Shown: positions 6,697-32,101 of the stretch, piece by piece | Layout of the letters: each line of letters opens with the position of its first letter | How positions within the stretch are numbered: the stretch's first letter is position 1 | The notes under the pieces: generated by a model | What the model saw: the letters and a program-made list of their open reading frames with translations, nothing else | What the model was told of the DNA's origin: nothing | The model's database searches: none | Made by a program: the position numbers and the translations under genes | Assembly (NCBI GenBank): GCA_947570625.1 | Contig: CANOUP010000015.1 | Location: forward strand, 1-45,455 | Source of the DNA: an uncultured Clostridia bacterium | GTDB lineage: Bacteria > Bacillota > Clostridia > Christensenellales > Borkfalkiaceae | DNA: 45,455 nt | Direction: 5' to 3'

Positions 6697-6701
6697 AACG
6701 T

Positions 6702-7154: not shown

Positions 7155-7183
7155 TTGACTGTAACAAGGTTTTGTTATATAAT
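7155..7183 (+). promoter_or_regulatory. Strong sigma-A promoter of the large surface/AAA+ operon
   Basis: TTGACT at 7155-7160, 17-bp spacer, TATAAT at 7178-7183. Predicted start near 7190, leaving a 40-nt leader to ATG 7230. No other convincing promoter or terminator is visible between here and the end of the MBL-like gene, so this probably drives at least nine genes. Confidence 0.8.
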
Positions 7184-7229
7184 AGAGTATGGATTAAAGT
7201 ATATTCCGCAAATTAAAGCGAGGCAAGAT

Positions 7230-7931
7230 ATGGCGCTCTGGATTATATTACTGATAACTATAATAACCGTATTCGTAGCAGTGCACGCCGTACTGTTGCC
7301 CAAACTGTTTTTAAAAGTAAGATACGCATATAAAAATATCCCCGACCGCGGTTTGAAAGTCGTCGACGAGGCAAACGGCAGAAGCATAGTTTACGAGCCC
7401 GACGAAAGCATAAAGGATTTTATAAACCAGTACATTGTTTCCGAGCGGGACGGAAAAAAGAGCTTTGTCTGCAAAATCGACGGCGACATACGATTTATCG
7501 ATTTCGACATCGTTCTTTTCAACGAAAAGGGCGTTTCGTTCAAGGTTTTAAACGTAAAGGAAATTATAAAGAACAAGGGCTATACGGAAGTTGTTCCCCT
7601 GCCCGACAAAACGGTATACGTTACGGTCGTGCTTAACAGGGTTAACGACTCTCACCGCGAAAACAGAGCTTCCAAACACGTCGTGTTGAAGGGCGTCGCG
7701 CTGTACATACTTTCCTGCGCGCTGATAGAAATACTCTGCGTTTTCGGCATTAAAGCCTGCATAGGCAAAATATACGGCGGACTGTTTTTCGAAAGCTTTA
7801 TGTACATAGCCGATACGTGGATTTTTACGGCGGTCGTCTGCGCGGGCGTAATTATTTTAAACGTGCTTTTCACCGTCGCGGTCGTGTTCATAAAAAAGAA
7901 AAACAAAAAGAAGGGGGAAGCAAATGGCTGA
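7230..7931 (+). CDS. Membrane protein with a beta-rich soluble domain, first gene of the operon
   Basis: This 233-residue protein has one N-terminal TM helix (~3-24), a soluble region (~30-150) and two C-terminal TM helices (~152-178 and ~195-222), ending in a lysine-rich tail. I do not recognise the family. The soluble region ('SERDGKKSFVCKI...VPLPDKTVYVTVVLNRV') resembles the N-terminal cytoplasmic domain of the next protein ('IRENGKKYLLIRF...ALPRMIEVEENCEDVKI'), so the two may share a domain. The longer frame beginning at 7128 is rejected because the promoter (7155-7183) lies inside it; ATG 7230 has an AGG a few bases upstream. The stop overlaps the next start by 8 bp, indicating translational coupling. 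Confidence 0.75.
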   Translation: MALWIILLITIITVFVAVHAVLLPKLFLKVRYAYKNIPDRGLKVVDEANGRSIVYEPDESIKDFINQYIVSERDGKKSFVCKIDGDIRFIDFDIVLFNEKGVSFKVLNVKEIIKNKGYTEVVPLPDKTVYVTVVLNRVNDSHRENRASKHVVLKGVALYILSCALIEILCVFGIKACIGKIYGGLFFESFMYIADTWIFTAVVCAGVIILNVLFTVAVVFIKKKNKKKGEANG

Positions 7932-10900
7932 TTACAACGTCGTTTCGAAGAGCGAATATCTTCACCCCCAAAACAATAACGCCGTGCCCGCGGACAGCTT
8001 TATGTTTATCCGCGAAAACGGAAAAAAGTATTTGCTTATCAGGTTCAAAAACGTCCGCAAGAGCCTTCTTACGGGGCTTAACCTCGAAATAACCCAGCTT
8101 GACGGGCGGGGAAAAACGCTTGCCGAAAAGAGCGTGAAGTACGGCAATCTTTCGGGAAAGGCGGGAAAGCTTTACGCGCTTCCGCGGATGATTGAGGTCG
8201 AAGAAAATTGCGAGGACGTAAAGATAAAAGTGTGCGAAGCGCTTTACGGTTCTTACGCGTACAGGATAGAAGGCGGGGAGGAGAAAGTCGGCTATATCGC
8301 GCCCTCCGAAAAGTTCGATATAGAAAACGCCGTCAACCAAATGCGTTGGGAAAACGTCAGCGTTTCCGAGCGCACGGTAAAAAAGAGAGTGCTTCTCGGT
8401 ATTTTCTCCTGCCTTTTAATCGTCTTGATGCTCGTCTTTACCTTCCTTCAACTTAAAAAGTTCGAGGACGGACGTGCGGTATTCCACTACAAAGGCGTGG
8501 AATATACGTTTGAAAACGGCGACACGGGCTACGGAACGGACATTTACGTTACGGGCTTCGGCGCAATGCGTTCGGACATACATATACCCGCCGAAATAGA
8601 CGGGCATACCGTAACGAAAATTTCAGACAATGCTTTCAGATTCAATACCGCAATCCGTTCGCTGACGGTAGAAGGCGATATACCCATAGGCAATAACGCT
8701 TTTTCGGGCTGTACGAATTTGAAAACGGTAAACATAGAAAATGTGCGCGATATCGGCATATCTGCATTTGCGGACTGTTCCGCGCTGACGTCGTTTAAGT
8801 CGGTCAACCTCGCTTCCGTCGGGAACGGAGCGTTTAAAAAATGCAACTCGCTGGTTTCCGTCGATATTTCTCACGACACGCAGAAGGTGCGCCTCGGCGG
8901 ACGGGTATTCTCGGACTGCCCGTCGCTTGCTTCCGTCAACATTGCGCAGACGGTTGTCTACCCCGAAGACTATTCTCTTTTCCGCGGTTCGGACAACGTA
9001 AAAGAGCTAAGACTCAAAAATTTCGAAAACGCGGTCGACGGCAGAAGCGCAAGGACGCTTGTAAGCCTGTTCGGCACAGCCGAAGGATACGGCAATAAAT
9101 TAAAGCTTGAAACGGTTGTTATAGAAAACCTCGAAGTTATCGGCGATAACTTTTTAAAGGGCGCGCCCGTCTTAAACTTCAAGGCGGAACGCCTTGCGGA
9201 AAGTAAAATAGGCAAAAGCGCGTTCGAGGGCACGCAACTGAAAAATTTAGAACTTCCCTTATCCGTGACGGAAGCGGGCGAAAGTTCGTTCCGCGATACT
9301 TTGCTCGAAAGCTTCGACGCGAGCGAGCTGACCGTCGCGGGCGACAATGCGTTTTCCGGAAGCGCCCTTAAATCGTTCAACGGCAGAACGCTGACCAATA
9401 TCGGCGCGAGCGCGTTCGCGGACTGTTCCGCGCTCGAATCGTTTACGTTCGGCGACGGGCTGTCGTTTATGGGCGCAAGCGCGTTCGAAAACTGCACGTC
9501 GCTTACCAAAGCCGTTTATCCACGCAATCTCGGTTTCGTACCGGTCAGGGCGTTTGCGGGCTGTACCTCGCTTAAAAATATCGGCTTAACCGAAAGCTCG
9601 GTCATAACAATAGGAGAAAGGGCGTTTGCGGGCTGCGCCTCGCTCGGCGAACTCAGTTTGCCGCAACAGCTTATAAGTCTTGACGAAGGCGCGTTCGAAA
9701 ACTGCGCGTCGCTTTCTTCGGTATCCTTCCCCGCAATTTCGGGTATGTTCGAAAAAATAGGCGGCAACGCTTTCAACGGCTGTTCGTCGCTTAAAGAAAT
9801 TGCCGTTCCCGACTGCGTCGCGGAAATAGGCAGGGGCGCTTTCGGCGGAACTTCGCTTGAAAAAATTTCCGTGCCCTTCATAGGCGGAAGCCGTGCGGAG
9901 AACACTTATTTAAGCTATATTTTCGGGTCTGCGCGATATACTGACGCAAAAGCATTTCCCGAAACTTTAAAATGCGTTCAGGTAACCGTTGATAAAAACA
10001 TACCCGATTACGCGCTGTACGGCTGTGCCTCGCTTGAAGAAATAATTTATCCCGAAAACGTTTCGGCGATAGGACGTGAAGCGTTCAGAAACTGCAAGTC
10101 CCTTAAAAGCATAACGGTGCCCGACAGCGTAAGCTCAATCGGCTTCGGCGCGTTTGCAAACTGCGACGGGATTACCGAATATACCGCGCCTTTCGCGGGC
10201 GGAAGCGCTTCGTCCAACGGCTTTTTGGGCTACGTATTCGGCGCAAACAGTTACGTCGAAATAGAAACGGCGCTAAAAAATAACCGTTATATTATCCCGA
10301 GGACGCTTGAAAAGGTCACTCTCACGGATACCGTGAATTTGCCGTCGGAAGCGTTCGGAAACTGTTATTTTATAAAGACGGTCGACCTTACGCCGTCATA
10401 CTCGCTTGTGTCGCTGGGCGCAAATTGCTTTTACAACTGCCAGTATCTCAAAGAGGTAAAACTTCCCGCAAGCCTTAAATCGATAGGCGCGCGCGCGTTC
10501 AATAACTGCATTAGGCTTGCCGAATTTACCGTGCCCGAAGGGGTGGAAGCGTTCGGCGCGGAAGTATTCATACAGTGCTACAAGCTTTACGAAATCTGGA
10601 ACCTGAGCGGTATAGACAGCAAAGTTATTCTCCAATCCGCGCCAAACTGTCTTAAAGTGCACGGCGCGCTCGGCGACGGTCTGGAAAAACTGTATGCGGA
10701 CGGGTTTACGATAGCGCGGAGCGATAAGCTTTTTTACCTTGTGGGTTACCCCGAAGGTGCGGTTAAACTCAGACTGCCTTCTACGGACTTCAATTACATA
10801 ATTTCCAATCACCTGTTCTACGGCGACGCGGAACTTAAAAACGTATATCTGCCCGCCTGCGTGTCAACGGCGGGAGTAAGCGCGTTTGCAAACTGCGTTT

Positions 10901-13302
10901 CGCTGGAATATGCGGAGTTTGCCGAAAGCCCTGCTTTTACGCGCATAAGTTCGAATATGTTCGAAGGGTGCGCAAGCCTTAAAGAAATAATTATTCCCGA
11001 AGGCGTTCTCGCCGTGGGAAGCGGCGCTTTTAAGGACTGCAAAGCCCTTTCAAAAGCAGAATTTTCGTCGGTCTTGACGGAAATAGAAAACAACGCGTTT
11101 TCGGGCTGTTCGGCGTTAAAGAGCATATATCTGCCCGAATCGGTACGCACGGTAGGGGCGGGCGCGTTCGAAAACTGCGCGTCGATGACGCTTGCGGAAT
11201 TTGCAAACGGAATCGAATACATCGGCGATAACGCATTTGCGGGATGCGAATTGCTCGAAGCAGTAAAAATCCCTTCTTCGCTTACATATCTTGGCGGTTA
11301 CGCGTTTGCAAACTGTACGGCGGTAAAGACGCTCGAAATAGAAGAGGGCTTGCTTGAAATCAAAGAATATACCTTCTACAACAACTTTTCGCTTACCGAC
11401 GTAAAGCTTGCCGACAGCATAACTTCAATCGGCGTCTTTGCGTTCGCGGGCGCGAATATCATGTATATCGACCTGCCCGAAAATTTAGTGCGTCTGGACG
11501 AATACGCGTTGGCGGGTAATATATTACTGCGGAGCGTATCTGTGTATTCCGCACTCGAAATCATTAATTCGGGCGCGTTCGAAAACTGTCCCAGGCTTTA
11601 CCTTATTTATAATATAGGCGGACTGCCTTTGAACGCGGGCTCTCCCTATTTAGGCAACATAGCGCGTAACGCGCGCGTAATAGCCGACTCTTTCGAATCC
11701 GCGGGCTATGCCGACGTTGACGGAATAACCTACCTGCGCGGAAACGGATACTGGCGCGCGGTTTGGTGTGACGAAAATATGTCTGTTATCGACTTGCGTG
11801 AATTTACGTGCGATAACGGCGAAACGGTAACTTCGTTTACAGTCGATTCCCAAGCGTTCGCCGGCAACCGGAACATAACAAGTTTGAATATCGGTTCTGC
11901 CGTAAGTTCTTTGGACGGCGGAGCGTTCAGCGGGTGCGCCAACCTTCAAAACGTCCTATTCGAGGACGGGCTTCTCGAAGCGCTGCCCGATAACGCTTTT
12001 ACGGACTGCTATTCGCTTCAAACGGTTACGGTAAGAAATACCGCTTTGAAAACGATAGGCGCATATGCTTTTTCGGGCTGTTCGTCGTTAGAAACTTTAA
12101 ACCTCTGCAAAGGACTTGAAAGAATAGGCGACAACGCGTTTTTCAACTGTTACAATTTAAGAAAGGTCGCATTGCCGGAAACCCTTATAGGCATAGGCGC
12201 AAGCGCGTTCTTCGGCTGTATTACGATACCCGAAATCGCCGTGCCTGCGTCGGTGAATGAAATAGGCGTGTACGCGTTCGCGTACTGCAACAATCTTACG
12301 GACGTAAAACTATCCGCGCTTGACGCAATTCCCGAAGGTTTGTTTGCGGGCTGTTTCGGTATCTTAAACATTTCCATACCCGAAAGCGCAACCGCGATAG
12401 GAGCGTCCGCTTTCGAAAACTGCTCGTCGGTAGAAAGCATTATCCTTCCTGAAAACTTACAGTCAATCGGCTTAAACGCTTTTTACGGCTGTACAAATTT
12501 GCTAGTCGTCTACAATTTAAGCGAACACATCAGGGTGACCGAACACGGCACCGATAACGGAATGGCGGGATATTACGCGGTTGCAGTGTTCACCGCGCTT
12601 GAACAAAAAGCCGATTTCGTTTCCGCAGGCGACTGCAATTTCGTGCGCGTAAACGGAGAGTGGTATCTTTACGGCTTCACGGGCGACAGATACGGTATAG
12701 CGTACCTGCCCGAAAGCTTCATATACGAAGGCGAAGAAATAACTTCGTACACGGTCAAAAATTATTCGTTCGCATACCTGTACGGAAGCATCGTCATACC
12801 CAAAGCCGTAAAGGCAATCGGTCCTTTCGCCTTCTTCGACGGCAACTATGCAAGCTTCGGAGTATATTACGGCGGAACGGCCGAGGAGTGGAAAGATATA
12901 GCGCCTCCTAATGTGACCGCTTCTACGCTGTATATTTACAAGGACTGCGTTCACAACGATTACGAGTGGACGTATGACGGTCGCGGAAAAGTTTCCGTAA
13001 ACAAAGACGTATATCCCTTCGACGTTATCGAGCGCGTTGACCCGACCTGCACGGAAACGGGTTATGAGGTGCACAAATGCAGTCATTGCGAATATACCTA
13101 TACGACGGTTTTGGAAGCGTCGGGACATTCGCAGGTGATAGATTATTATAAGGCTCCGACCTGCACAGAGGACGGTCTGACGGAGGGAAGCCACTGCGGA
13201 GTCTGCTGGGAAACGCTCAAAGAGCAGGAAGTTATTCCCGCGGAAGGGCACAGGTATGACGAGGACGGAACGTGCGCCGATTGCGGTGCGAAGAGAGAAT
13301 AG
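7924..13302 (+). CDS. Giant membrane-anchored BspA-like LRR_5 surface protein
   Basis: This is a 1792-residue protein. Residues 1-~155 form a soluble domain without signal peptide. One TM helix follows (~157-178, 'LLGIFSCLLIVLMLVFTFL'). The bulk (~200-1680) is more than forty LRR_5/BspA repeats of the kind 'IGDNAFAGCELLEAVKIPSSL'. The C-terminal ~110 residues contain Cys pairs ('CSHCEY', 'CGVCWE', 'CADCGA') between 'PTCTETGYEVHKC'-type segments, a Cys-rich tail seen on clostridial surface proteins. The expected topology is N-in/C-out (type II). LRR_5 proteins of this kind bind host or bacterial surfaces; here the N-terminal domain would face the cytosolic AAA+ proteins of the same operon. No LPXTG is present. 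The shared domain with the upstream protein suggests they act together (inference). Confidence 0.85.
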   Translation: MADYNVVSKSEYLHPQNNNAVPADSFMFIRENGKKYLLIRFKNVRKSLLTGLNLEITQLDGRGKTLAEKSVKYGNLSGKAGKLYALPRMIEVEENCEDVKIKVCEALYGSYAYRIEGGEEKVGYIAPSEKFDIENAVNQMRWENVSVSERTVKKRVLLGIFSCLLIVLMLVFTFLQLKKFEDGRAVFHYKGVEYTFENGDTGYGTDIYVTGFGAMRSDIHIPAEIDGHTVTKISDNAFRFNTAIRSLTVEGDIPIGNNAFSGCTNLKTVNIENVRDIGISAFADCSALTSFKSVNLASVGNGAFKKCNSLVSVDISHDTQKVRLGGRVFSDCPSLASVNIAQTVVYPEDYSLFRGSDNVKELRLKNFENAVDGRSARTLVSLFGTAEGYGNKLKLETVVIENLEVIGDNFLKGAPVLNFKAERLAESKIGKSAFEGTQLKNLELPLSVTEAGESSFRDTLLESFDASELTVAGDNAFSGSALKSFNGRTLTNIGASAFADCSALESFTFGDGLSFMGASAFENCTSLTKAVYPRNLGFVPVRAFAGCTSLKNIGLTESSVITIGERAFAGCASLGELSLPQQLISLDEGAFENCASLSSVSFPAISGMFEKIGGNAFNGCSSLKEIAVPDCVAEIGRGAFGGTSLEKISVPFIGGSRAENTYLSYIFGSARYTDAKAFPETLKCVQVTVDKNIPDYALYGCASLEEIIYPENVSAIGREAFRNCKSLKSITVPDSVSSIGFGAFANCDGITEYTAPFAGGSASSNGFLGYVFGANSYVEIETALKNNRYIIPRTLEKVTLTDTVNLPSEAFGNCYFIKTVDLTPSYSLVSLGANCFYNCQYLKEVKLPASLKSIGARAFNNCIRLAEFTVPEGVEAFGAEVFIQCYKLYEIWNLSGIDSKVILQSAPNCLKVHGALGDGLEKLYADGFTIARSDKLFYLVGYPEGAVKLRLPSTDFNYIISNHLFYGDAELKNVYLPACVSTAGVSAFANCVSLEYAEFAESPAFTRISSNMFEGCASLKEIIIPEGVLAVGSGAFKDCKALSKAEFSSVLTEIENNAFSGCSALKSIYLPESVRTVGAGAFENCASMTLAEFANGIEYIGDNAFAGCELLEAVKIPSSLTYLGGYAFANCTAVKTLEIEEGLLEIKEYTFYNNFSLTDVKLADSITSIGVFAFAGANIMYIDLPENLVRLDEYALAGNILLRSVSVYSALEIINSGAFENCPRLYLIYNIGGLPLNAGSPYLGNIARNARVIADSFESAGYADVDGITYLRGNGYWRAVWCDENMSVIDLREFTCDNGETVTSFTVDSQAFAGNRNITSLNIGSAVSSLDGGAFSGCANLQNVLFEDGLLEALPDNAFTDCYSLQTVTVRNTALKTIGAYAFSGCSSLETLNLCKGLERIGDNAFFNCYNLRKVALPETLIGIGASAFFGCITIPEIAVPASVNEIGVYAFAYCNNLTDVKLSALDAIPEGLFAGCFGILNISIPESATAIGASAFENCSSVESIILPENLQSIGLNAFYGCTNLLVVYNLSEHIRVTEHGTDNGMAGYYAVAVFTALEQKADFVSAGDCNFVRVNGEWYLYGFTGDRYGIAYLPESFIYEGEEITSYTVKNYSFAYLYGSIVIPKAVKAIGPFAFFDGNYASFGVYYGGTAEEWKDIAPPNVTASTLYIYKDCVHNDYEWTYDGRGKVSVNKDVYPFDVIERVDPTCTETGYEVHKCSHCEYTYTTVLEASGHSQVIDYYKAPTCTEDGLTEGSHCGVCWETLKEQEVIPAEGHRYDEDGTCADCGAKRE

Positions 13303-13310
13303 GTGAGAAA

Positions 13311-16300
13311 ATGCTGAAAAACCCCGACATAATCGAAAAACTCAATCCCGAAGCGAAAGCGTCGCTCATAGCCGACGGCAACGCGCTTTTCACGCAGGGT
13401 TATGTAAAGGCGGGAATACCGCGCGTTGCGGTTTCATCTGCGGACGAAGTCAACGAAAGCGAGGGCAATTTATATCCTTCTTTCAACGCGCTCGCAAATT
13501 CGTGGAATTCCGACCTTATGTCCGCCGTCGCCGAAGATTTGGCGGTGCGCACGAAATCGGAGGTACAGCTTCTTAAAACCCCGCCCTTGCGCGTTAAAAG
13601 CAATCCTTATACCGAGGGAGTTTCGGAGGACCCCTATCTCGTCCGCACGTACGCGTACAATATCTTAAAATCAATCCGCGAAGCAGGCGTTATGCCCTGC
13701 CTTTCGGGTATTGCGCTGAACGACGGCGATTTCAGATACCTCGACGCAAGAATGGATTTCGGCGCGGTACGCGACTACTTTTTAAGTCCTTACAAGGCGC
13801 TGTCCGCGCTGGACGAAGGCGTCGTCTGCTTAACAAACCGCAGTAAGCCGGAAGGCAGTTATGCGGAGGTCAACAGCGGAGCGCTTTCGAATATGCTTAC
13901 CGTCATTTCTGAAAAGAGAGGCGGTTACGTCCTGTGCGAGGGCGTCGACGGCGACTCGACGGTTAAGTCGGCGGTTAAATACACGCTTGCGCTGGGCGGA
14001 AACGCTTCGGCGATAACCCGGGCGGTCGCCAATTACGACTATATAAAAGAGAGCATAAACACGGGCGACGCTTCGGGCAACGACCTTGACTCGGCGTGCC
14101 GCGACTACACGGCTTTAAGCGCGTCCGCGGTCGACGAACTGTGCGATAAAGTAATAAGCTTTGCGCTCGACTGCAATAAAAGCGCGGTTAAAGGAACGCC
14201 CGACGACAACCTTGCTCTGACGGCTTCGCAGGAAAGCATAGTGCTTTTAAAGAACGAGGGAAGCGCGCTTCCGCTAAAAAAGAAGTGTAAAATAGCTATA
14301 ACCGGCGAGCCTGCGTTCCGGGAATACGGCGGACAAAGCTTTGCCGAATATATCGCGTCCGAAGGTTCGTTCGAAATTACGGGCACGTCGCGCGGTTACT
14401 CGTCATCGGAGGCGAGAAGCGAAAAGCTATTAAACGAAGCCCGCCTCGCCGTCAAGGGCGCGGACGCGGTAATCGTCTTTGTCGGCTTGAACGCGGAGGA
14501 CGGCGCCCGCAAATCGGTAAAGCTCCCCGCAAACAGGATTGCGCTTATCGACGCAATGAAACGGCTGGGCAAAAAAGTTATCGCCGTAATTGCGGAAGAG
14601 GGTTGCGTAGATACGGCTTTCGATACGTCGGTTTCGGCATTGCTTGTCGCGCCCCTCGGCGGTAAGCGCGCAAACGAAGCGCTTTCGGGCGTGCTCCGCG
14701 GTACGGTATGTCCTTCGGGCAGACTTGCGGAAACGTACTACGACGGCACGGACGAATATTTCGGAGCAATAAGGTCGCAGTTGAAAGCGGGCAAACGCAA
14801 GGCGGGCGGGTTCATAGGTTACCGCTACTACGATACGTCGGGCGAAAAAGTAAAGTATCCTTTCGGGTTCGGTCTTAGTTATACGTCATTTACGTATTCC
14901 AACTTAATCGTCAGCGGAAACAGCGCCGAAGTTACGGTGAAGAATACGGGCAAGTGCGAAGGCTCGGAAACCGTGCAGTTATACATAGGCAAAAATTCGT
15001 CCTGCGCAGTACGCCCCGTAAAGGAATTGAAGGGCTTTGCGAAAGTATTTTTAAAGCCGGGCGAAAGCAAGGTTGTAAAGTTCAACATAAACCCGAAGCT
15101 GTTGTCCGTGTACGATACGCAGACGGGCAGGAACACCGTCGAAAACGGCGAATACGCGCTGTATATCGCTTCTTCGGCAAGCAACGTCCGCCTTACCGCC
15201 AAAATGCAGGTCAAGGGCGAAACTCTTTCCGACGACGGCAAAAAGATAAAGGATTATATCCCCGACCGTACGGATATACTTTCGGGCGGATATATGCTCG
15301 GCGACGTAAAACTCGCAAAGGTCAGGGGTAAGGGCGCAATCGCGTCGGGCATTATCGCAATGATTACAGCCTTGCTCGGGGTCGGCGTACTTTTCGCATT
15401 ACACTATCTTGCCGTAATAGATATCAAAGAACATCTGTATCTTCAAATAATATTTTACGTGCTTTCGGGCTTGTTCGGGCTTAACCTGATAATTATGTTC
15501 ATAGGCGTCGGGTTGTACCGCAAGTCAAAAAAGCGTGCGGTAACGGTTCGGGCGAAGAGAAAATCCGCCCCCGTGCCTGCGCATCCGTTCGAAAAACTGT
15601 TCGAGAAAGAGTTTAAGGCGGAGGAAGAAATAATAACCGTCAAAGAGGAAACGCGCGAAGCGTTCGACGAAGAACAGGAAGCGCTAAGGCACATTGATCC
15701 GTCTTTTACCCTGAACACGGCGTGTTCGCAACTCGTTGCTTACTGTCTGTCCCGCGGTATAAACATAGACGCGCAGTCCGCGGCAAAGGTGCTCGCGTCG
15801 TTCGTTTCGTCAAGGTTAGTGATAATTAAAAGCAAAAACGCGCGTCTTTTGCCTGAGTTTTTAAGCGCGCTCAACGGCTATTTCGGAACGGAAGAATTTA
15901 TCGAAAGTTTTTCTGGCTGTAATTCGTTCGAGGACTTTACGGCTAAAACTTCACGCGCGGTTTTAAGCGCGAAAAACGCGCGCAAGGACGTGCACGTCGC
16001 TTCGCTTACCGATGTAAATGCAGACAATATCCGCGATATTCTGCTTCCCATGCTCAAATACGCGGTTTCTCCCGAAATACCCTGTTCGGTAAAGTACGGA
16101 TATGATTCTCAATTCGAAATAACTCCCAACGTCTGGTTCGTGCTCGCGCTCGCCGAGGGCGCGGCGGTTTCGGGCGACGACGTAATAATACTCAACTCCT
16201 CGGTTGCCGTCGACGTAAACATTTCCGAATGCGGGGCGGGCGAAGAGTGCGAAGTCAGGCATATAAGCTATTACCAGCTTGACAGATTTGCTTCGGAGAT

Positions 16301-16634: not shown

Positions 16635-16650
16635 CCCCGCGAGGTAACAT

Positions 16651-17973: not shown

Positions 17974-17975
17974 TT
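16934..17975 (+). repeat. 1042-bp identical repeat, ATPase copy 1
   Basis: Line-by-line comparison shows identity with 20213-21254 (offset 3279), from the end of the acidic linker through the stop codon plus two bases. Just upstream the copies carry scattered substitutions that are silent in the protein, then diverge fully in the membrane-anchor region. Confidence 0.9.
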
Positions 17976-18007
17976 CAGACCCTTTCGTTTAATTTTAAGA
18001 GGAAAAT

Positions 18008-21254: not shown

Positions 21255-21287
21255 TAAAAAGGTAAATTATTATTAAAGGAGGTGCCT

Positions 21288-24137: not shown

Positions 24138-24171
24138 AAGAAATCATAAAATAAAAAAGGAGGTAAGAGAA

Positions 24172-27100
24172 ATGCTGTACGAACAATACCGCGCGAGAAT
24201 GTCTAAGCTTGCGGACTTTTTAGACTCTCTGCGCAAATACCGCATACTGATAATTTCGATATGTCTTGCGGTGCTTTCTCTTACCGCCGTCCTTTTGGGT
24301 ATAAGCGGGATTGTCTACGACAGTAAAGCCTGCCCCGCGGAAATTACGGCGGGCGACGGACTTTCATACCGTGCGGGCGCAATATTCAATTCGGTTTCGT
24401 ACGAGTTCCGCGCGGAAGATTCCGACGTCTGGACGGACGAACAACCCGCCCGCCCCGGCGCATACCTTGTCAGGTCCGTGTCGCACGATATCGCGGGCAA
24501 GCCCAGATACGGCAAAGTGCACGCGTTCACCGTGCTTCCGCGCACGGTAACCGTTACTGCGGACTGTTCTTCGGTAGTTTACGGCGAACTTCCGCCTGTT
24601 AAAGCCGAGCTTCTCTATTCGGACAGAATAACCTGCTCGGAGTTTGTATATGCCGATTATTCGGCGGAAAACACCTCGGCAGAGCCCGTCGCTTCCGCCG
24701 TAACCGCATACGACGCGGACGGAAACGACGTTTCGTACACGTACAATTTCGTCACCGCGCCTTCGGATATTGCTTTTATAAAGCGCGGAATAAAAGTTTC
24801 GGTAACGCCCTATACGGTTGATTACGACGGAAAGGAACACCCGCATATCCCTTACGAGGGGTACGAAATCAGCAGTGAAACGCCCCTTGCCGACGGCGAT
24901 ACCGAAGAGGTGTACGTCAGGGTTTTTCAGACTTCGGCGGGCAAGTACGACAACGAGATATATTTCAAAATTTACAGGCAGACGGAAAACGGCAGGGTAG
25001 AGGTCACTTCCAATTACGATTTCGACGTAACGTCGGGTACTCTGGTTATAAACAAACGCACGCTCGTTATAACTACTTCCGATTTGACCGCAACTTACGA
25101 CGGCGGCGAAAAATCCAACAAAGAATTTACGCTGTCCGAAAGTTCGCGCACCGCGCTCGAATCGGCGGGGCACACCGTTTCGGTTACAGGGTTCACAAGC
25201 GAAATCAACGCGGACGAGTACGAAAATATTCTGGAATTTGCCGTAACCGATAAGGACGGCAAAGACGTTACGTCCAACTACAATTTCGACTGTACTTACG
25301 GCAAAATCACAATAAATCCCCGCCCGCTTATATGCAACACGGACGGTGCAAGCTGGTATTACGACGGAAAGGTTCATTCCGAAAATACGGGCTTTATCAT
25401 CACCATCAACAGCGAAAGCAGTTACGCGGGACACGACGAAATAGCGTACTTTATCGAGGGCAGCGAAATGCACGTAAAGGACGTGAAAGACTCGTGCGAA
25501 AACCGCCTGAAAATAGGGGTAAAAAATTCCGTAACGGGCGAGGACGTTACGGCGAACTACGCGATAAATTACGTCTACGGCGAACTTACGGTAATACCGC
25601 GTCCCGTCAACGTCAGGGTGCTGAACGCAGAGTGGCATTATGACGGAAAAGCTCATTCTTCCAGCGAGCACGAAATTACCTTCGATGAAGAGCTTTTCGA
25701 AACCGCGCTTGTAGACGGACACAGCGTCCGCGCGCGCGCGCTAAAATCGCTTACAGACGTTGCAAAAAGCGTGCCCAACGCAATCGACTTCGGCATTTAC
25801 GATGGCGAAACCGCCGTTACGGGCAATTACGGCGTAAACCTTATTAACGGCACATTAACTGTTCTCCCCCGCGAAATCACGGTTCGCGCGGGCAGTGCGG
25901 AAAAGGTGTACGACGGCATGCCGTTGACGGGCGGTAACAAGGCGGAAGCCGTTAACCCGTCGCAACTTGTAGAGGGGCATACTATAACCGCGCGGAACGA
26001 GGGCTACAAGATAGAGGCAGGCTTTGAATATTCCGAAATACCCGACGCGGAATCTGTCCGCATAGCAGACGCAGACGGAAAGGACGTAACTAAAAATTAC
26101 AGCGTCGTCGGTCTTGAAAAGGGCACGCTCACCGTCTTAAAGCGCGAAATAACGTTGACCGCGGGAAGCGATGAAAAGATTTACGACGGCGCGCCTCTGA
26201 CGTGCGGGCTTTACAATGTATCGTCCGTTTACGAAAGTCCGCTTGCGGAAGGGCAGGAACTGACTGTTCGGGTTTCGGGCGAGCGCACAAACGCAGGCTC
26301 GGGCGAAAATATAATAGCCTCCTATCAAGTAACGTGGGGGACGACCGACGTCACGGTAAATTACACTGTCAATTGCGAAAAAGGCGCCCTTACCGTATTA
26401 AAGCGCGAAGCGGTTATTTCAACGGACGGTTCAAACGAGGGCGAACTGGTTTACAACGGTCTTGAACAGAGCGTCGCGCGTTTTAAAGAGCTGACTGACG
26501 ATAACCCTTTCAAGGGCATTTTAGAAGGTCACTTTGCTTACATAAAAAAAGAGTTTTCGGCAATCGACGCGGATACGTACGACAACGAGCACGTGTTCGG
26601 AATAAAAGCAGGCGTGGGCGAAGTTACGGACGAAAACGACGTAACGGATAACTACGCGATTACCGTACTGTACGGCAAACTTACAATCGAAAAGCGCCCC
26701 GTTACGGTAATTACACAAAGCAAGACGGACTTTATCTACAACGGCCGTCCTCATTCTTACGGCGGTCATACCGTGTCGGAGCAGACCCCGCTCGCGCTCG
26801 AAAGCCATTACACGGTTTCTTACGAGCTTGCCGAGGCGACGGAAGTTCTCAAAGAGGGCGAGGAACCCGTCGCCAACACTATGAAAATAGCCGTATACAA
26901 CGACGAAGGCGATATTTCGCATAACTACGCGATAACCGTCGTCGCAGAGGGCGTGCTTACAGTCAACGCGCTTGCGGTAAAGGTAAAGTCGGGGAGCACG
27001 GTTTTAGAATATAACGGAAAGGGTCAGTCCTATCCTATTTTGCAGACGGTCGGCGAAACCGCGCTTGTCGAAGGTCACGGCTTCAAATATAATTCCGTGC

Positions 27101-30100
27101 CCGAATTTATAAATGTAAAGCTCGATGAAAACGGCAACACCGAAAGCTATGAGAATTTAATCGGGTTTACGATAACAGATAAAGACGGTTCAGACAAGAC
27201 GCACAACTATTCAATCGCTTATTCAAGCGGTACCGTGACAATCGTACCGCGCGAAATGCTCATAGTTACCGACAGCAAAGAATGGACGTTCGACGGAGAA
27301 AATCACGTTTCCGATCTTGTAAAGGATGCGGACAACAAGCTTCTCGACGGCGCGCCTTATTATCATATGCTTGCCGTAAAAAGCGGACAGCTTCCCATGA
27401 TTAAGGACGCGGGCACGACAGTCAACAAGTTTGCGGTCGCCGTTTTGGATAGGGATTTCAACGATATTTCTTACAATTACGGCATTAAGTACGAATACGG
27501 CACGCTTGAAGTCAAGCCTCTGCCCTTGAAAGTAACGGCTAAATCGGCTGAAAAAATCTACGACGCAACTCCGCTTTCGGGTGTTCTTGTTTACGGCGAA
27601 GGCAAAGACTATACCGTGGAGCATAACGGAAAGCAGACCGAATACGAAAATATAATAGGGCTGGGCTATACGTTCGAAGCCTTGACGGAGGGCGAAGCCG
27701 TCAACGTCGACGACGGTAACGTTACGAAAGTCATCGCTTCGGAATTTAAAGTATACGACGGTTCGGGCGTGCTTACCGACCTTAAAAATTTCGATATAAC
27801 TTTTGTCGAGGGTACGCTGACTGTCAGACACCGCGAAATAAAGGTAAAGGCGGGCAGTGCCGAAAAAACGTACAACGGTTTACCGCTCGAATGCAAGGAA
27901 ACGGAAAACTGTATAATAACTTCCAACCACACCCCGGCGCTTTCTCCCGCAATAGTAAGCGGACAGATTTTGACGGTCGTTATCAATTCTTCGTATACGG
28001 AAGCGGGTTCGTGGGATAACGTAATCGAAAGCTATGAGATAACCGCCGGCGGAGAGGACGTTACGCGCAACTACAATGTGGAGCTTCTCGCGGGCGAGCT
28101 TAAAATAAACAAGCGCGGTATAACGGTTTACACAAAATCCGATAAAAAGATTTACGACGGCGCGCCGCTGACGTGCCATGAGATAGAGGACATAACGACG
28201 ACGGCAAACGACGGATTTTCTCCTCTTGTTTCGGACCATACAATCGTTCTTACGTACACGGGCTCGCAGACTTCCGCGGGAACGAGCGATAACACCGTTG
28301 ACGTTGAGTTAACGCAAATTCTTGCAGGCGGCGGTACGCCCGTAACGAAAAACTATGAAATAAACTATGAATACGGCACACTGAAAGTTACGCACCGCGA
28401 AATTACGGTGCAGACGTTAAGCAAGACCGATTTCATATACGACGGTCAGGAGCACAGCTATCTGCAATTCACGATAATTTCGGGAAGCACGGCGGATAAC
28501 CAGCAGGCGTTTGCGGACGAAGATAAGGAGTATACGACGGTAACCGACGTTGACGACGGCGAAAAGGACAACGCGTTCTCTTTGAAAATAACCGATGCCG
28601 ACGGTAATCCCGTAACCGAAAATTATAAGATAACCTACGACGCGGAAAACTGCGGTAAAATAAAGGTCAATCCCCGCCCGATAAACGTGTTTGCGGAGGA
28701 CTGTGAAAAGATTTACGACGGTACGGCCGACGTGCCCGACGAAATCAAAAAATACGGTTCGGCGCACTCTCAGGACGAAACGCTTTTCGGCACTGTAAAC
28801 GGGCATGAAATATATGCCGACATAACGGGCGAAATAGGCGCAAACGTCGGCGAATACAAAATTTCAATAGACGGCAAAGTCGTTATAAAGGACGGCGAAA
28901 ATGACGTAACAAACAACTATACCGTGACAAAGACTTATCCCGACGGCGCAAAACTTACCGTTAAACCCCGTCCGATAAAGATAGTTACGGGCGGAGATAC
29001 AAAAGAATACGACGGCACCCCGCTTACAAACGGTTACACGGAATTTTTCAATTTTGTCGAAGGACACGAAGCTTTTGTCGAGACAAACGGTTCGCAGACG
29101 GAGGCGGGCGAAAGCTTAAACACGGTAGACGAAGCGACGCTAAAAGTTACGGCTTCGGACGGAAGCGACGTTACGCGAAATTATATTCTTAAAACAGATT
29201 GCGGTACGCTTACCGTAACCCCGCGCGGAATAACCGTAAGCACGGGAAGCGCGGTAAAGGTCTACGACGGAAAACCGCTCACGTTCGATAAATGGGAGAT
29301 AACCGAAGGCAGTCTTGTCGAAGGACATTACGCCGCAGTACTGGTTACCGGTTCGCAGACTGAAATAGGCGAAAGCAAAAACTTTTTCGAAATCGACATA
29401 CATAACGAAAACGGCGATAGCGTCCTTAAAAACTATCTTGTTACAAAGGACGAAGGAACGCTGAAAGTTACCGAAAATACCGATACGGGCGATAAAGTTT
29501 ACGTAAGGGTAAAGACGGACAACGGCGGTATGGTGTTCCTCAGGGAAGCCAGCGTCGGCGACTATCTCGGCGGTATGAATTGGTCGCCTGCCGAGGAATA
29601 CGGCGGAGTAATAAATTACGAAGGGGTAAATTACGGATACAATTACCTTACTTCTTTGATATTGCAGGAAGCGGGTTACGCTTCTGACAAAGCGCAGATA
29701 GAGCTTCGCTACGGCGGTTACCTCATTCCTTACCACGCGGTAACGGGCGTCGGCGACTACACCGTACAGCTAAGCGACACCGTAAATAAGAGGGGCGAAG
29801 GCGGACTTATTTACAGTCTTGAATATATGCCTTACGATTACCTTGCTTCGGGCAAGCCGAACGCTTCGCACCCGTTTGCAAACGAGGAAGCGCAGTACGG
29901 CGCGTTCGTGCGCGAAAAATATCTCGGAATTAGCGCAAGCCTGCGCGAATTCCTCGGCGCGATAATCAAAGCCGAGGGCTTGACGGCAGACAACGTTTCC
30001 GCCGTTGCGCAATACATAAAGGGCGTTGCTGTATACGACGCGGAGCACAACTTCACAGATCTTGAAAACAGTCCCGACGTGGTACAAACGTTTTTAAGCG

Positions 30101-31122
30101 GTTACGGCTTCGGCGTCTGCCGTCATTACGCTATGTCGGCGGTAATGCTGTACCGCGCGCTCGGCATACCCGCAAGGTACACCACGGGCTTCGCCGTAAA
30201 TACTAAGGCAGGCGAGTGGGCGGATTTGTCGGTTGGTCACGCGTGGGTCGAAATCTACGTTGACGGGCTCGGCTGGGTTGCAATCGACGTTACGCCTTCC
30301 TCGTCGTCGGGCGGAGATATTGCGCCTTTCGAAATTACGTTAAGACCCGAGGACGAAGTCAAAACTTATGACGGCACGCCTTTAACCGCCGAAACGCTTG
30401 CGTTCGACTCTGTGCTCGATTACCTCTGTTCCGAGGGATACAGCTACGAGGTCGAGTTCGAGGGAAGCAGGGTTGAAATAGGCGAAAGCGAGAGCAGTGT
30501 GCGTACGTTTATTCTGTACGCGCCCGACGGCACGGTAGCAAGAAACGTAAACTACACTTACGAAACGGGCGTTCTGAAAGTCGTTGCAGAGGAAGTAATT
30601 ACAATCCATACTTACGAGATAAAGAAGGAATACGACGGTAAACCGGTATATCTGGAAAAAGACGACTGGTACGCCGACGGACTTCCCGAAGGCTATACGC
30701 TGGAAGTTATCGGGCTTGAAAACGTTGGGTTATCCGAAGCGGGCAATCTTTCGTCGGTAAGTTTCGAAAATTCAGTCGTGACGGCGGTTTACGACGCGGA
30801 CGGCAATGACGTTACCGATTACTTCTATATCGCGTACGACCCCGACGTAAGCATAACTTTGAAATCCATAACCGTTTCCACGCCCGATATGACCAAGGAA
30901 TACGACGGAACCGCGCTCGGCGACGGTAAGTACGAAATAACTTTCGGCGGACTTGTGTCGGGGCACACCCTTAAAGTCACAGAATTCGCAACCATAGTGG
31001 ACACGGGCGAAGCGGTCAATGCAATCGGGTTTACGATAGTAAACGAAAACGGCGCGGATGTGTCTATGAATTATATGGTAAGCACGGTATTCGGCAAACT
31101 GACCGTAACGGACGGAGATTGA
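24172..31122 (+). CDS. Giant MBG-repeat/transglutaminase-like surface protein
   Basis: This is a 2316-residue protein with one TM helix (~24-46) after a short basic cytoplasmic start. About seventeen MBG/YDG repeats of roughly 85-110 residues occupy ~130-1760. Their shared pattern is '(V/I)YDG.PL ... EGH ... TEAGE..N ... D.T.NY ... GTL.V'. A transglutaminase core follows at ~1960-2045, with the triad visible as 'GVCRHYA' (~1982), 'VGHAWVEIY' (~2022) and 'VAIDVTPS' (~2037). Three more repeats end the protein. No LPXTG is present, so anchoring is by the TM helix. It follows a very strong AAGGAGG site. The length suggests a fibre-like stalk displaying an intact catalytic domain far from the membrane. 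Substrate is unknown; the preceding gene is a shorter paralogue. Confidence 0.85.
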   Translation: MLYEQYRARMSKLADFLDSLRKYRILIISICLAVLSLTAVLLGISGIVYDSKACPAEITAGDGLSYRAGAIFNSVSYEFRAEDSDVWTDEQPARPGAYLVRSVSHDIAGKPRYGKVHAFTVLPRTVTVTADCSSVVYGELPPVKAELLYSDRITCSEFVYADYSAENTSAEPVASAVTAYDADGNDVSYTYNFVTAPSDIAFIKRGIKVSVTPYTVDYDGKEHPHIPYEGYEISSETPLADGDTEEVYVRVFQTSAGKYDNEIYFKIYRQTENGRVEVTSNYDFDVTSGTLVINKRTLVITTSDLTATYDGGEKSNKEFTLSESSRTALESAGHTVSVTGFTSEINADEYENILEFAVTDKDGKDVTSNYNFDCTYGKITINPRPLICNTDGASWYYDGKVHSENTGFIITINSESSYAGHDEIAYFIEGSEMHVKDVKDSCENRLKIGVKNSVTGEDVTANYAINYVYGELTVIPRPVNVRVLNAEWHYDGKAHSSSEHEITFDEELFETALVDGHSVRARALKSLTDVAKSVPNAIDFGIYDGETAVTGNYGVNLINGTLTVLPREITVRAGSAEKVYDGMPLTGGNKAEAVNPSQLVEGHTITARNEGYKIEAGFEYSEIPDAESVRIADADGKDVTKNYSVVGLEKGTLTVLKREITLTAGSDEKIYDGAPLTCGLYNVSSVYESPLAEGQELTVRVSGERTNAGSGENIIASYQVTWGTTDVTVNYTVNCEKGALTVLKREAVISTDGSNEGELVYNGLEQSVARFKELTDDNPFKGILEGHFAYIKKEFSAIDADTYDNEHVFGIKAGVGEVTDENDVTDNYAITVLYGKLTIEKRPVTVITQSKTDFIYNGRPHSYGGHTVSEQTPLALESHYTVSYELAEATEVLKEGEEPVANTMKIAVYNDEGDISHNYAITVVAEGVLTVNALAVKVKSGSTVLEYNGKGQSYPILQTVGETALVEGHGFKYNSVPEFINVKLDENGNTESYENLIGFTITDKDGSDKTHNYSIAYSSGTVTIVPREMLIVTDSKEWTFDGENHVSDLVKDADNKLLDGAPYYHMLAVKSGQLPMIKDAGTTVNKFAVAVLDRDFNDISYNYGIKYEYGTLEVKPLPLKVTAKSAEKIYDATPLSGVLVYGEGKDYTVEHNGKQTEYENIIGLGYTFEALTEGEAVNVDDGNVTKVIASEFKVYDGSGVLTDLKNFDITFVEGTLTVRHREIKVKAGSAEKTYNGLPLECKETENCIITSNHTPALSPAIVSGQILTVVINSSYTEAGSWDNVIESYEITAGGEDVTRNYNVELLAGELKINKRGITVYTKSDKKIYDGAPLTCHEIEDITTTANDGFSPLVSDHTIVLTYTGSQTSAGTSDNTVDVELTQILAGGGTPVTKNYEINYEYGTLKVTHREITVQTLSKTDFIYDGQEHSYLQFTIISGSTADNQQAFADEDKEYTTVTDVDDGEKDNAFSLKITDADGNPVTENYKITYDAENCGKIKVNPRPINVFAEDCEKIYDGTADVPDEIKKYGSAHSQDETLFGTVNGHEIYADITGEIGANVGEYKISIDGKVVIKDGENDVTNNYTVTKTYPDGAKLTVKPRPIKIVTGGDTKEYDGTPLTNGYTEFFNFVEGHEAFVETNGSQTEAGESLNTVDEATLKVTASDGSDVTRNYILKTDCGTLTVTPRGITVSTGSAVKVYDGKPLTFDKWEITEGSLVEGHYAAVLVTGSQTEIGESKNFFEIDIHNENGDSVLKNYLVTKDEGTLKVTENTDTGDKVYVRVKTDNGGMVFLREASVGDYLGGMNWSPAEEYGGVINYEGVNYGYNYLTSLILQEAGYASDKAQIELRYGGYLIPYHAVTGVGDYTVQLSDTVNKRGEGGLIYSLEYMPYDYLASGKPNASHPFANEEAQYGAFVREKYLGISASLREFLGAIIKAEGLTADNVSAVAQYIKGVAVYDAEHNFTDLENSPDVVQTFLSGYGFGVCRHYAMSAVMLYRALGIPARYTTGFAVNTKAGEWADLSVGHAWVEIYVDGLGWVAIDVTPSSSSGGDIAPFEITLRPEDEVKTYDGTPLTAETLAFDSVLDYLCSEGYSYEVEFEGSRVEIGESESSVRTFILYAPDGTVARNVNYTYETGVLKVVAEEVITIHTYEIKKEYDGKPVYLEKDDWYADGLPEGYTLEVIGLENVGLSEAGNLSSVSFENSVVTAVYDADGNDVTDYFYIAYDPDVSITLKSITVSTPDMTKEYDGTALGDGKYEITFGGLVSGHTLKVTEFATIVDTGEAVNAIGFTIVNENGADVSMNYMVSTVFGKLTVTDGD

Positions 31123-31123
31123 T

Positions 31124-32101
31124 ATGGAACGGGGAATTAAATTAAGGACGGTAATAATAGTCGTCGTATCGGCGGTCATAGCTATCGCGCTCATTGTCAC
31201 GAATATTTACGTGCCCGTCAAATATCTTTTCAGCTATACGGTTTTGCGCAACGGCAGGGCGGGCGAAGGCGTTATGCGCGTCAAGTTCGTCGACGTCGGA
31301 TACGGCGACTGTGTAATAGTCGAACTTCCCGACGGTAAAAATATGGTTATCGACGGCGGAAACGGAAGCGGTACCAACGAGGCGCGGATATTGAAACTGC
31401 TTAACAAAAGCGGTATCGACAATATCGATTATCTTGTTTGCACCTCGGTAAACGGCGAACAATGCGGAGGACTTGCCGAAATTATCAGATACAAAAACGT
31501 CGACAAAGTTTATTCGGCGTACTGCAAGAACATATACGTTACGGAAGAATACGCAAGTTTTATAAGCGCGCTTAACGTCAATAAAATAACCGCGACGGTA
31601 ATAGAAAAGGGTTTGACCGTCTATTCCGAAACGGGTTACAAGTTTACCTTTTTATCGCCCTCCGCGCTGAACAATCCCGAAGGGGAATACGCGCAGTTGG
31701 GCAAGGACCCCGAAAACCAGACTCACAGAGATAACGCTTCGGCGGTAATGTGGCTCGAATATGCGGGCACGTCGTTTATGTTTACAAGCGACGCGGGTAA
31801 ACAGGCTTTATCCAAACTTTGCGCGGATTACGAGGCCGCGCCCGAAAGTTTCAAAGCCGAGCTTGAAAAATGCACGGTCATGACCGTTCCCGCACACGGT
31901 AACGGCAAAAATATTTGCGGTGAGCTTTATAAGCTTGCGTCGCCCGAAGCGGTTATACTTTCGGTAGGCAAAAACGGTTACGGCTGTCCGGGCGCCGAAT
32001 GCATAAGCGGGCTGGAGGATAACGGTTTTACGGTCAAACGCACGGACGAGGACAAGACCGTTACCGTCGAAGTAACGCAAGACGGATTTACATTTATTTA
32101 A
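31124..32101 (+). CDS. Membrane-anchored ComEC-type metallo-beta-lactamase-fold protein lacking metal ligands
   Basis: This is a 325-residue protein with an N-terminal TM helix (~9-30) and a beta-lactamase fold like the ComEC/Rec2 extracellular hydrolase: 'KFVDVGYGDCVIVELPDG', 'MVIDGGNGSG', 'FMFTSDAGK' and 'VPAHGNGKN' occur in the family's order. Where active members read THxHxDHxGGL, this one reads 'TSVNGEQCGGL' (~106-116): all four ligands (H, H, D, H) are replaced. It is therefore probably non-catalytic. It starts one base after the stop of the giant transglutaminase gene and is its likely partner, perhaps binding a ligand outside the cell (inference). Only 12 bp separate its stop from aroC. 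Confidence 0.8.
   Translation: MERGIKLRTVIIVVVSAVIAIALIVTNIYVPVKYLFSYTVLRNGRAGEGVMRVKFVDVGYGDCVIVELPDGKNMVIDGGNGSGTNEARILKLLNKSGIDNIDYLVCTSVNGEQCGGLAEIIRYKNVDKVYSAYCKNIYVTEEYASFISALNVNKITATVIEKGLTVYSETGYKFTFLSPSALNNPEGEYAQLGKDPENQTHRDNASAVMWLEYAGTSFMFTSDAGKQALSKLCADYEAAPESFKAELEKCTVMTVPAHGNGKNICGELYKLASPEAVILSVGKNGYGCPGAECISGLEDNGFTVKRTDEDKTVTVEVTQDGFTFI

What the first reader, a model, noticed from the sequence alone, without database searches (positions are those of the whole stretch)
7155..32101. Candidate undescribed system: membrane-tethered McrBC-like AAA+ motor encoded with giant surface proteins
Seen: one strong promoter and nine tightly spaced, same-strand genes encoding a TM protein, an LRR_5 protein of 1792 residues, a GH3-like/TM/AAA-like protein, two TM-anchored McrB-like ATPases flanking a McrC/DUF2357-like coiled-coil protein, two MBG-repeat transglutaminase-like proteins (949 and 2316 residues) and a TM-anchored ComEC-type MBL-fold protein. 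Known: McrBC and related coiled-coil (CoCoNuT-type) systems are soluble nucleic-acid restriction machines; separately, MoxR-type AAA+ genes often sit with DUF58 and transglutaminase membrane proteins. Neither matches this set. Inference: an envelope-spanning machine in which a cytosolic ATPase ring acts on, assembles or senses large adhesive surface proteins.
Basis: partly seen in the sequence, partly recalled or inferred. Interest (0 to 1): 0.88.

Follow-up and report, generated by a model that had tools for sequence, protein, structure and literature searches.

The report
McrBC-like motor for giant surface proteins
Gut Clostridia carry a conserved set of eight genes in which a membrane-anchored motor related to a virus-fighting DNA cutter, but with no cutter recognised, is encoded together with giant proteins that stick out of the cell, suggesting that this machinery was re-used to build or control the cell surface.

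Summary
Of 69 related loci, 46 hold an intact AAA / DUF2357-coiled-coil / AAA block; 39 of 41 testable ones have an MBG-type surface gene next, 35 of 35 have two, 39 of 43 have the GH3-like/TM/AAA-like gene upstream.

Both ATPases are McrB-like (NxD motif). Their DUF2357 coiled-coil partner has no recognised nuclease. The GH3-like protein ends in a third AAA domain without a P-loop. The two ATPases have different membrane anchors but, in this lineage, motor domains kept alike by gene conversion.

The nearest clade has a single ATPase: 11 of 11 sampled loci have SipW-type signal peptidases and 9 of 11 secreted proteins with a SipW-dependent-like start. That fits 'CoCoPALM', named but not described in the 2024 CoCoNuT paper. 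The window system looks like a relative that carries giant MBG/transglutaminase/LRR proteins instead.

The MBL gene is not core (0 of 27 loci that reach far enough; present in the nearest relative). Best explanation: a transmembrane NTPase machine controlling assembly, display or cross-linking of surface proteins. Function is inferred, not tested.

The parts
7155..7183 (+). Promoter-like site TTGACT-17-TATAAT, left boundary of the conserved unit
   Evidence: 11 of 12 matches; such sites not above chance in the region; both hexamers identical in G052 and homology starts at 7152
7230..7931 (+). Membrane protein with 3 predicted TM segments and a domain perhaps related to the N-domain of the LRR gene (core component)
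   Evidence: orthologues at the same position; hhalign to the LRR N-domain, prob 84, E 7e-6
7924..13302 (+). N-in membrane protein: beta-sandwich cytosolic domain, one TM (residues 156-174), extracellular BspA-type LRR_5 array; the N-domain is core, the LRR array is variable and often absent
   Evidence: LRR_5 1.3e-227; AF2 pLDDT 88.5; LRR-less orthologues of about 175-270 residues in many loci
13311..16634 (+). GH3-like (degenerate) domain, TM hairpin (residues 690-708 and 726-744), then AAA-like domain without P-loop (about 15579-16631)
   Evidence: AAA homology. Start at 13311 chosen over GTG 13272 by eye
16651..17973 (+). AAA1: McrB-like (NxD) NTPase with one N-terminal TM
16847..17973 (+). 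Gene-conversion tract in AAA1 (motor domain)
   Evidence: 99.3% identical over 1128 bp to 20126-21252
18008..19843 (+). McrC-like DUF2357 domain with a long coiled coil (model helix 346-505); no TM and no recognised nuclease domain
19840..21252 (+). AAA2: McrB-like (NxD) NTPase with two N-terminal TMs
20126..21252 (+). Gene-conversion tract in AAA2 (motor domain)
21282..24137 (+). MBG/YDG-type repeat surface protein with transglutaminase-like core, N-terminal membrane anchor (likely ATG at 21288)
   Evidence: (repeat matches weak)
24172..31122 (+). Giant (2316 aa) repeat surface protein with transglutaminase-like core, N-terminal membrane anchor; repeats MBG-like by similarity to the preceding gene, no Pfam repeat match
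31124..32101 (+). TM-anchored ComEC-type MBL protein; adjacent, probably not a core component
   Evidence: conserved next to aroC in G052, no hit in the other loci

Best explanation
The eight genes 7230-31122 form one conserved system: a membrane-embedded McrBC-type NTPase machine dedicated to a set of long surface proteins. Shown by sequence: two intact NxD McrB-like motors with different membrane anchors, a third AAA domain lacking a P-loop fused to a degenerate GH3 domain and a TM hairpin, a McrC-like DUF2357 coiled-coil partner without a recognised nuclease, two membrane proteins with small cytosolic beta domains (one carrying a variable LRR array), and two N-anchored repeat/transglutaminase surface proteins. 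Inferred: the AAA proteins co-assemble into a mixed ring under the membrane; DUF2357 stimulates NTP hydrolysis as McrC does for McrB; the coiled coil passes the conformational change to the short cytosolic tails or beta domains of the surface proteins; this controls their assembly, display or transglutaminase-type cross-linking. The system derives from, or shares an ancestor with, a single-motor form linked to SipW-type signal peptidases and secreted proteins (CoCoPALM-like), which already points to a cell-surface rather than a nucleic-acid role.
For: Gene order in 69 loci: 46 of 69 hold AAA-CC-AAA; next gene MBG-type 39 of 41 testable; two MBG genes 35 of 35 testable; GH3-like just upstream 39 of 43, the other 4 a multi-TM protein; tm267/LRR-type gene upstream 33 of 37; one strand 46 of 46; median gap 12 bp in my ORF models. 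In 200 genomes (G000 among them) the 25 DUF2357 hits with E below 1e-50 all lie between two AAA genes, G075 split over two contigs (my reading). Of 218 unassigned ORFs of at least 100 aa, only four clusters recur in four or more loci: three are components or their replacement, one (u1, 6 loci) is upstream. P-loop, DExN and NxD in 110 of 110 AAA proteins. The only PDB sequences matched at E up to 1e-5 are three of McrB. DUF2357 in 36 of 48 partner proteins. MBG proteins have an N-terminal TM in 100 of 103. N-anchors match best by position in 107 of 108 (all hits: 3877 same position, 530 other) while motor domains are homogenised within the locus, as expected if the two motors must stay interchangeable in one assembly. 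The nearest single-motor clade has SipW-type peptidases in 11 of 11 loci.
Against: No biochemical or expression data. No structural match for the DUF2357 model was found, so a McrC-like fold rests on the Pfam match. Transglutaminase motifs, by a rough regular expression, are found in 30 of 60 first and 10 of 60 second MBG genes, so cross-linking can hardly be the universal function. Of the 23 incomplete loci, about nine lack one AAA and/or the DUF2357 gene inside the sequence; assembly collapse and true loss are both possible. NCBIfam recognised none of the secreted neighbours of the single-motor form apart from one weak TapA match (0.0093). The tree is rooted at the midpoint and warns of meeting long branches. 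Most sources are metagenome assemblies (titles).
Confidence: 0.55

Rival explanations
1. Anti-phage defence: a membrane-tethered McrBC/CoCoNuT variant that senses infection at the envelope, with the surface proteins as sensors or effectors.
For: McrB/McrC ancestry. PADLOC: the motors match candidate PDC-M26A (2e-45 and 2.9e-46) and weakly AriA (4.1e-4, 9e-4) and LmuB (about 0.0018); the MBL gene matches LmuA (6.3e-14), RTasMBL (1.7e-13) and PDC-M48B (5.1e-9); the coiled coil weakly matches JetC (8e-4) and ZorA (0.036). Presence varies among relatives (79 of 200).
Against: No nuclease or HEPN domain was recognised by Pfam in the nine genes. The MBL gene with the strongest defence-library matches is not core, and MBL-fold families match one another. 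The CoCoNuT paper says that coiled-coil systems with a missing or inactive McrC nuclease are always closely associated with another predicted nuclease (PMC11090510 section 7). MBG-type surface proteins are constant partners.
Confidence: 0.12
2. Transmembrane sensor/signalling complex: LRR, MBG and transglutaminase proteins bind host or bacterial ligands outside, and the AAA/DUF2357 machine is the cytosolic output.
For: Cytosolic beta-sandwich N-domain linked by one TM to a variable LRR array; pseudo-GH3 probably on the cytosolic side; functional parallel to the PFNA operon of bifidobacteria, read in passages.
Against: Apart from the components and one membrane-protein-like cluster (u1, 6 loci), no gene cluster recurs in four or more loci, so no kinase or regulator is a constant neighbour; an NTPase motor is an expensive signal output (judgement).
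Confidence: 0.2
3. An independent surface-protein cluster that merely neighbours a McrBC operon.
For: Surface proteins vary greatly in length and many lack transglutaminase motifs.
Against: The order is kept in 35 of 35 testable loci with mostly different flanks; the GH3-like gene of the block itself carries an AAA-like domain.
Confidence: 0.05

Closest known systems
[quoted passage not shown]
   Same: NxD McrB with N-terminal TM; coiled-coil DUF2357 partner; no nuclease recognised; link to surface assembly. The nearest single-motor clade here (L112-L117, L126-L130) fits it, with SipW-type peptidases.
   Different: Window type has two motors with different anchors plus a P-loop-less AAA; no SipW-type hit in its loci; partners are repeat/transglutaminase, LRR and pseudo-GH3 membrane proteins; its motors show little N-terminal coiled coil (by eye).
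McrBC / CoCoNuT type IV restriction systems
   Same: McrB-type AAA domain, DUF2357 partner, coiled coil.
   Different: Membrane-anchored; no nuclease, HEPN or DNA-recognition domain recognised by Pfam; surface-protein partners.
MoxR-DUF58-transglutaminase clusters, e.g. PFNA operon of Bifidobacterium (PMC6803598, passages read)
   Same: AAA ATPase plus transglutaminase plus large adhesive surface protein in one operon of gut bacteria.
   Different: Different AAA clade (MoxR vs McrB NxD); no DUF58 or kinase in the window set; transglutaminase is polytopic there and N-anchored with repeats here.
tapA-sipW-tasA fibre operon of Bacillus (recalled)
   Same: SipW-type peptidases, and secreted proteins with a similar start, accompany the nearest clade's motors.
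   Different: No McrBC motor in the Bacillus operon (recalled); no SipW-type hit in the window-type loci.

Membership tests
NxD branch of McrB-like NTPases | Signature motif NxD instead of NxxD, usually followed by E or D | tested here: met
   N-x-D in 110 of 110 paired-type AAA (107 NNDD, 3 NDDD, which alone would also satisfy NxxD) and in 20 of 20 singles, where the fourth position is D, E or G; N311 and D313 invariant in 33 aligned motors
NxD branch of McrB-like NTPases | Partner with DUF2357 (McrC N-terminal domain) | tested here: met
   Pfam DUF2357 2.1e-6 in the window; 36 of 48 homologues at E up to 0.01
CoCoPALM | McrB fused to FtsB-like TM plus coiled-coil domain | tested here: inconclusive
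   TM present (1 TM in 52 of 54 AAA1, at least 2 in 54 of 54 AAA2); FtsB homology not tested; coiled coil visible by eye in singles, hardly in the window's motors
CoCoPALM | Coiled coil in the McrC homologue | tested here: met
   AF2 model with a 160-residue helix; SMC-type coiled-coil matches (1.6e-4)
CoCoPALM | Association with signal peptidase family proteins | tested here: not met
   SipW-type profile hits in 14 of 20 single-AAA loci (11 of 11 in the nearest clade), none in the loci numbered below L112 or above L131
CoCoNuT / McrBC restriction | Nuclease in McrC or encoded nearby | tested here: not met
   No nuclease domain recognised by Pfam in the nine genes or in 48 partner homologues; PADLOC matches of the MBL gene to LmuA are told under the defence rival
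MoxR-DUF58-transglutaminase cluster | MoxR-type AAA and DUF58 gene | tested here: not met
   AAA hits AAA_5 and McrB; no DUF58 match among the nine genes
Glycoside hydrolase family 3 | Catalytic Asp and substrate-binding Lys-His pair | tested here: not met
   Window aligns Glu at the nucleophile and Ser-Gly at Lys-His against 7ms2 (roles of the residues recalled); in 58 rows the nucleophile column is Glu in 25 and Asp in 9, in a poorly aligned stretch
McrB GTPase | GTP hydrolysis stimulated by McrC | not testable with these tools
   Needs purified proteins

The most novel reading that the evidence does not exclude
A McrBC-type motor whose substrate is not nucleic acid: a hetero-oligomeric transmembrane NTPase ring (two converted, differently anchored motors plus a P-loop-less third AAA and a DUF2357 coiled-coil activator) that drives assembly or cross-linking of giant adhesive proteins on the outer face of the cell, with gene conversion keeping the two motors interchangeable.
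Probability: 0.35. Interest if true: 0.88.

Novelty: new variant of a known kind. Interest (0 to 1): 0.74.

Why it matters
McrBC-type motors are known as restriction machines. A conserved, nuclease-less, membrane-anchored form tied to giant surface proteins in gut Clostridia would show that this engine was turned to building the cell surface. It gives the CoCoPALM idea a concrete, testable branch, with a related clade linked to SipW-type peptidases, a named strain record (Anaerocaecibacter muris) and clear predictions for motor and activator mutants.

Tried and rejected
Fold searches: the DUF2357 model gave no Foldseek match at E 0.001 or better, and VIA-align gave only middling Z (best 6.3, long-helix rows); McrC was not listed, which is inconclusive. 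The LRR N-domain model gave no match at E 0.001 or better. The profile of the DUF2357 family against PDB sequences listed mainly helical and coiled-coil chains, none named McrC among the 60 shown of 99.

Considered and rejected: MBL gene as a core member; active GH3 enzyme; assembly duplication as the cause of the twin motors (differences persist, anchors differ by position, and a named strain record, L039, shows 98.5% over 1094 bp); strong promoters or terminators splitting the set (told in full in the observation check). Phylum-wide search: 50 of 398 genomes match at E 1e-20 or better (G000 included), and outside G000 none is better than 1.5e-34.

Limits: one search kept the best 80 of 142 confirmed stretches (69 loci). 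The 20 single-motor loci were picked by me, not drawn at random. The tree used 29 of the 54 pairs and all 20 singles. One search used 47 of 71 listed partners, 35 of 40 listed N-domains and 34 of 43 listed tm267 rows, each plus the window. ORF models start at the first start codon after a stop, so gaps are lower bounds. In one search, L067 counts as incomplete probably because of my ORF choice (one search shows its first AAA). One P-loop-like string occurs among 58 GH3-AAA rows, in L038, and 3 of 58 show a Walker-B-like string. Four of 57 DUF2357 proteins show a TM-like segment. TM segments come from a simple hydropathy scan. The SipW profile was built from five neighbours of which three pass the TIGR02228 cut-off and two fall just under it. 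Not-in-print statements rest on the searches only; subscription papers are mostly not held.
Full report
What is there. The window (contig 15 of a 1.72 Mb genome in 38 contigs) holds nine same-strand genes between 7230 and 32101, then aro genes, dgt, dnaG and rpoD (named by eye). The repeats of the first transglutaminase protein match YDG and MBG_2 only weakly, those of the second no Pfam family. The only promoter-like site matching 11 of 12 positions is at 7155-7183; such sites are not clearly more frequent than chance. Yet homology with the nearest relative begins at 7152 with both hexamers identical, and the DNA to the left is unrelated and AT-rich in both genomes.

Is it a unit? A scan of genome contigs with AAA2 gave 69 loci, from the best 80 of 142 matches. 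In my ORF models, 46 of 69 hold an uninterrupted AAA - DUF2357 coiled coil - AAA block. Downstream, 39 of 41 testable loci have an MBG-type gene next (the two exceptions, L076 and L088, have under 700 bp of sequence left), and 35 of 35 with more than 5 kb have two. Upstream, 39 of 43 have the GH3-like/TM/AAA-like gene and the other 4 a multi-TM protein; 33 of 37 have a tm267- or LRR-type gene. All 46 lie on one strand; the median gap is 12 bp and 201 of 207 gaps are 100 bp or less. Of the 23 incomplete loci, 13 are cut at an end of the locus near the AAA/DUF2357 genes and 10 are not; one of these, L067, is probably complete. The query was one AAA protein, so its neighbours were not selected for. 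Flanking genes mostly do not recur: of 218 unassigned ORFs of at least 100 aa, four clusters occur in at least four loci; three are components or their replacement and one, u1, stands upstream in 6 loci. After the block come aro genes in the window and G052, but tsaB-like genes (named by eye) in G050 and G010. The MBL gene is missing in 27 of 27 loci of L023-L111 that hold two MBG genes and at least 1 kb beyond them; the one hit is in G052.

Spread. Of 200 genomes (the window's own and relatives), 79 have an AAA match and 58 a DUF2357 match. The 25 DUF2357 matches with E below 1e-50 (G000 included) all lie between two AAA genes, G075 over two contigs. In 398 genomes of the phylum, 50 match at 1e-20 or better (G000 included), but outside G000 none better than 1.5e-34; in these samples the close form was seen only within the order. 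Titles also name Oscillospiraceae, Pygmaiobacter and Anaeroplasma; I did not check those labels. One named strain record, Anaerocaecibacter muris (L039; lineage), carries the set.

The motors. P-loop, DExN and N-x-D occur in 110 of 110 paired-type AAA proteins. Across 33 aligned motors N311 and D313 are invariant, while the next residue is D in the paired type and D, E or G in singles. This is the NxD form described in PMC11090510 (section 7 read). The only PDB sequences matched at E up to 1e-5 are three of McrB. AAA1 has one TM in 52 of 54 pairs and AAA2 two or more in 54 of 54. The best cross-locus match of an N-anchor is at the same position in 107 of 108 cases; of all cross-locus hits 3877 are to the same and 530 to the other position. 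Yet the motor domains of the window pair are 99.3% identical in DNA; by my count 15 of 54 pairs are at least 98.5% identical over at least 1090 bp and 19 of 54 at least 92% over at least 987 bp. In the tree, motor domains group by genome in the window lineage and by position in another lineage. Position-specific anchors with genome-specific motors point to repeated gene conversion. I infer that the two motors need matching interfaces, perhaps in one ring.

The third AAA. The C-terminal part of the GH3-like protein is homologous to the motors but lacks a P-loop in 57 of 58 rows; the exception may be chance. Its GH3 domain aligns with beta-glucosidases, with Glu in place of the nucleophile and Ser-Gly in place of Lys-His (residue roles recalled). 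45 of 48 homologues have no TM in the first 300 residues, so the domain is probably cytosolic.

The partner. DUF2357 is found in 36 of 48 homologues. The AF2 model (pLDDT 79.9, pTM 0.48) shows an N-terminal domain with a long beta hairpin (162-189) and a helix from 346 to 505. No nuclease domain was recognised, and no structural relative was found.

The surface proteins. MBG-type proteins have an N-terminal TM in 100 of 103 cases and range from about 200 (partial) to 4197 residues. Transglutaminase motifs by regular expression occur in 30 of 60 first and 10 of 60 second genes, a low bound since some genes are cut at locus ends. One homologue has five transglutaminase stretches (L078), while others scanned have none recognised. 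The LRR protein has a cytosolic beta-sandwich domain (Ig-like by my reading; pLDDT 88.5), one TM and an outside LRR array; in many loci only the first two parts exist. A profile comparison relates this domain to the first gene's product (prob 84, E 7e-6), which is suggestive only.

Relatives. Single-motor loci (L112-L131, 20 picked) show what the motors do elsewhere. The paired motors form one group (99/94), joined with 11 singles (98/97; the 11 together 93/98); the root is a midpoint and the tool warns of long branches. In these 11, 11 of 11 loci have SipW-type signal peptidases, two each within about 3.3 kb, and 9 of 11 have a secreted protein with a T/S-F/Y-A-W-F start, like SipW-dependent precursors (motif recalled). 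Of the five seed peptidases, three pass the TIGR02228 cut-off and two fall just short; of the five secreted neighbours scanned, one weakly matched TapA (0.0093) and the rest nothing, so 'TasA-like' rests on the motif. Three of the five 576-642-residue singles also have such a peptidase; four 806-991-residue singles have none. No SipW-type hit occurs in the paired loci. This matches CoCoPALM as named in PMC11090510, which defers its description to a later paper. A full-text search for CoCoPALM listed that paper, its preprint and eight papers with unrelated titles.

Against this reading. PADLOC matches the motors to a candidate defence protein (PDC-M26A, 2e-45 and 2.9e-46) and the MBL gene to LmuA (6.3e-14) and RTasMBL (1.7e-13). 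The MBL gene is not core, but the defence rival stays open.

How it most likely works. Shown: composition, order, topology by hydropathy, motor motifs, gene conversion, and kinship with a SipW-linked form. Inferred: a mixed AAA ring at the inner face of the membrane, stimulated by the DUF2357 protein, acting through the coiled coil and the cytosolic beta domains on the short inner tails of MBG and LRR proteins, to control their assembly, display or cross-linking. The PFNA operon of bifidobacteria (MoxR ATPase, DUF58, transglutaminase, adhesive FN3 protein; passages read) is a working parallel from a different AAA clade. Rivals are defence and signalling; I rate both lower.

Verdict. A real, conserved system; a new variant of the CoCoPALM-like branch of McrBC, not filed as a CoCoPALM because the signal-peptidase association was tested and not met. 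Interest 0.74.

Noticed in passing
1-6900: AT-rich stretch (about 34-38% G+C against about 50% after 8000) with two lipoprotein-like genes 98.8% identical over 646 bp (1552-2265, 2373-3077) and a large LRR/repeat protein (3093-6608, read by eye) that is single-copy over its full length in this genome.
   Followed up: partly
L135:9500-11601 (G052 upstream of the same promoter): A different AT-rich insert (27-34% G+C) with a replication-protein-like ORF and a tyrosine-recombinase-like ORF (named by eye), joining the conserved unit at the same point as in the window: a possible insertion hotspot.
   Followed up: partly
L118-L121: A deep branch of 806-991-residue, multi-TM McrB-like proteins next to a 489-623-residue gene (weak DUF2357-family matches in G040 and G094), without SipW-type genes.
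   Followed up: no
L068, L076, L079, L082, L088: Reduced variant: one 273-285-residue multi-TM protein (weak 7TM_transglut match, 0.0048, for L076) stands where the GH3-like gene is elsewhere.
   Followed up: partly
L037, L041, L050, L052, L064: GH3-like - AAA - MBG without the middle DUF2357 and one AAA: either recombination between the twin motor genes or assembly collapse.
   Followed up: no
L054: Record labelled Anaeroplasma (Mycoplasmatota) carries the AAA-DUF2357-AAA-MBG-MBG block: misbinned contig or horizontal transfer.
   Followed up: no
16651-17973, 19840-21252: Both motors match PADLOC candidate defence protein PDC-M26A (2e-45 and 2.9e-46), so that candidate family may include surface-linked McrB-like proteins.
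   Followed up: no
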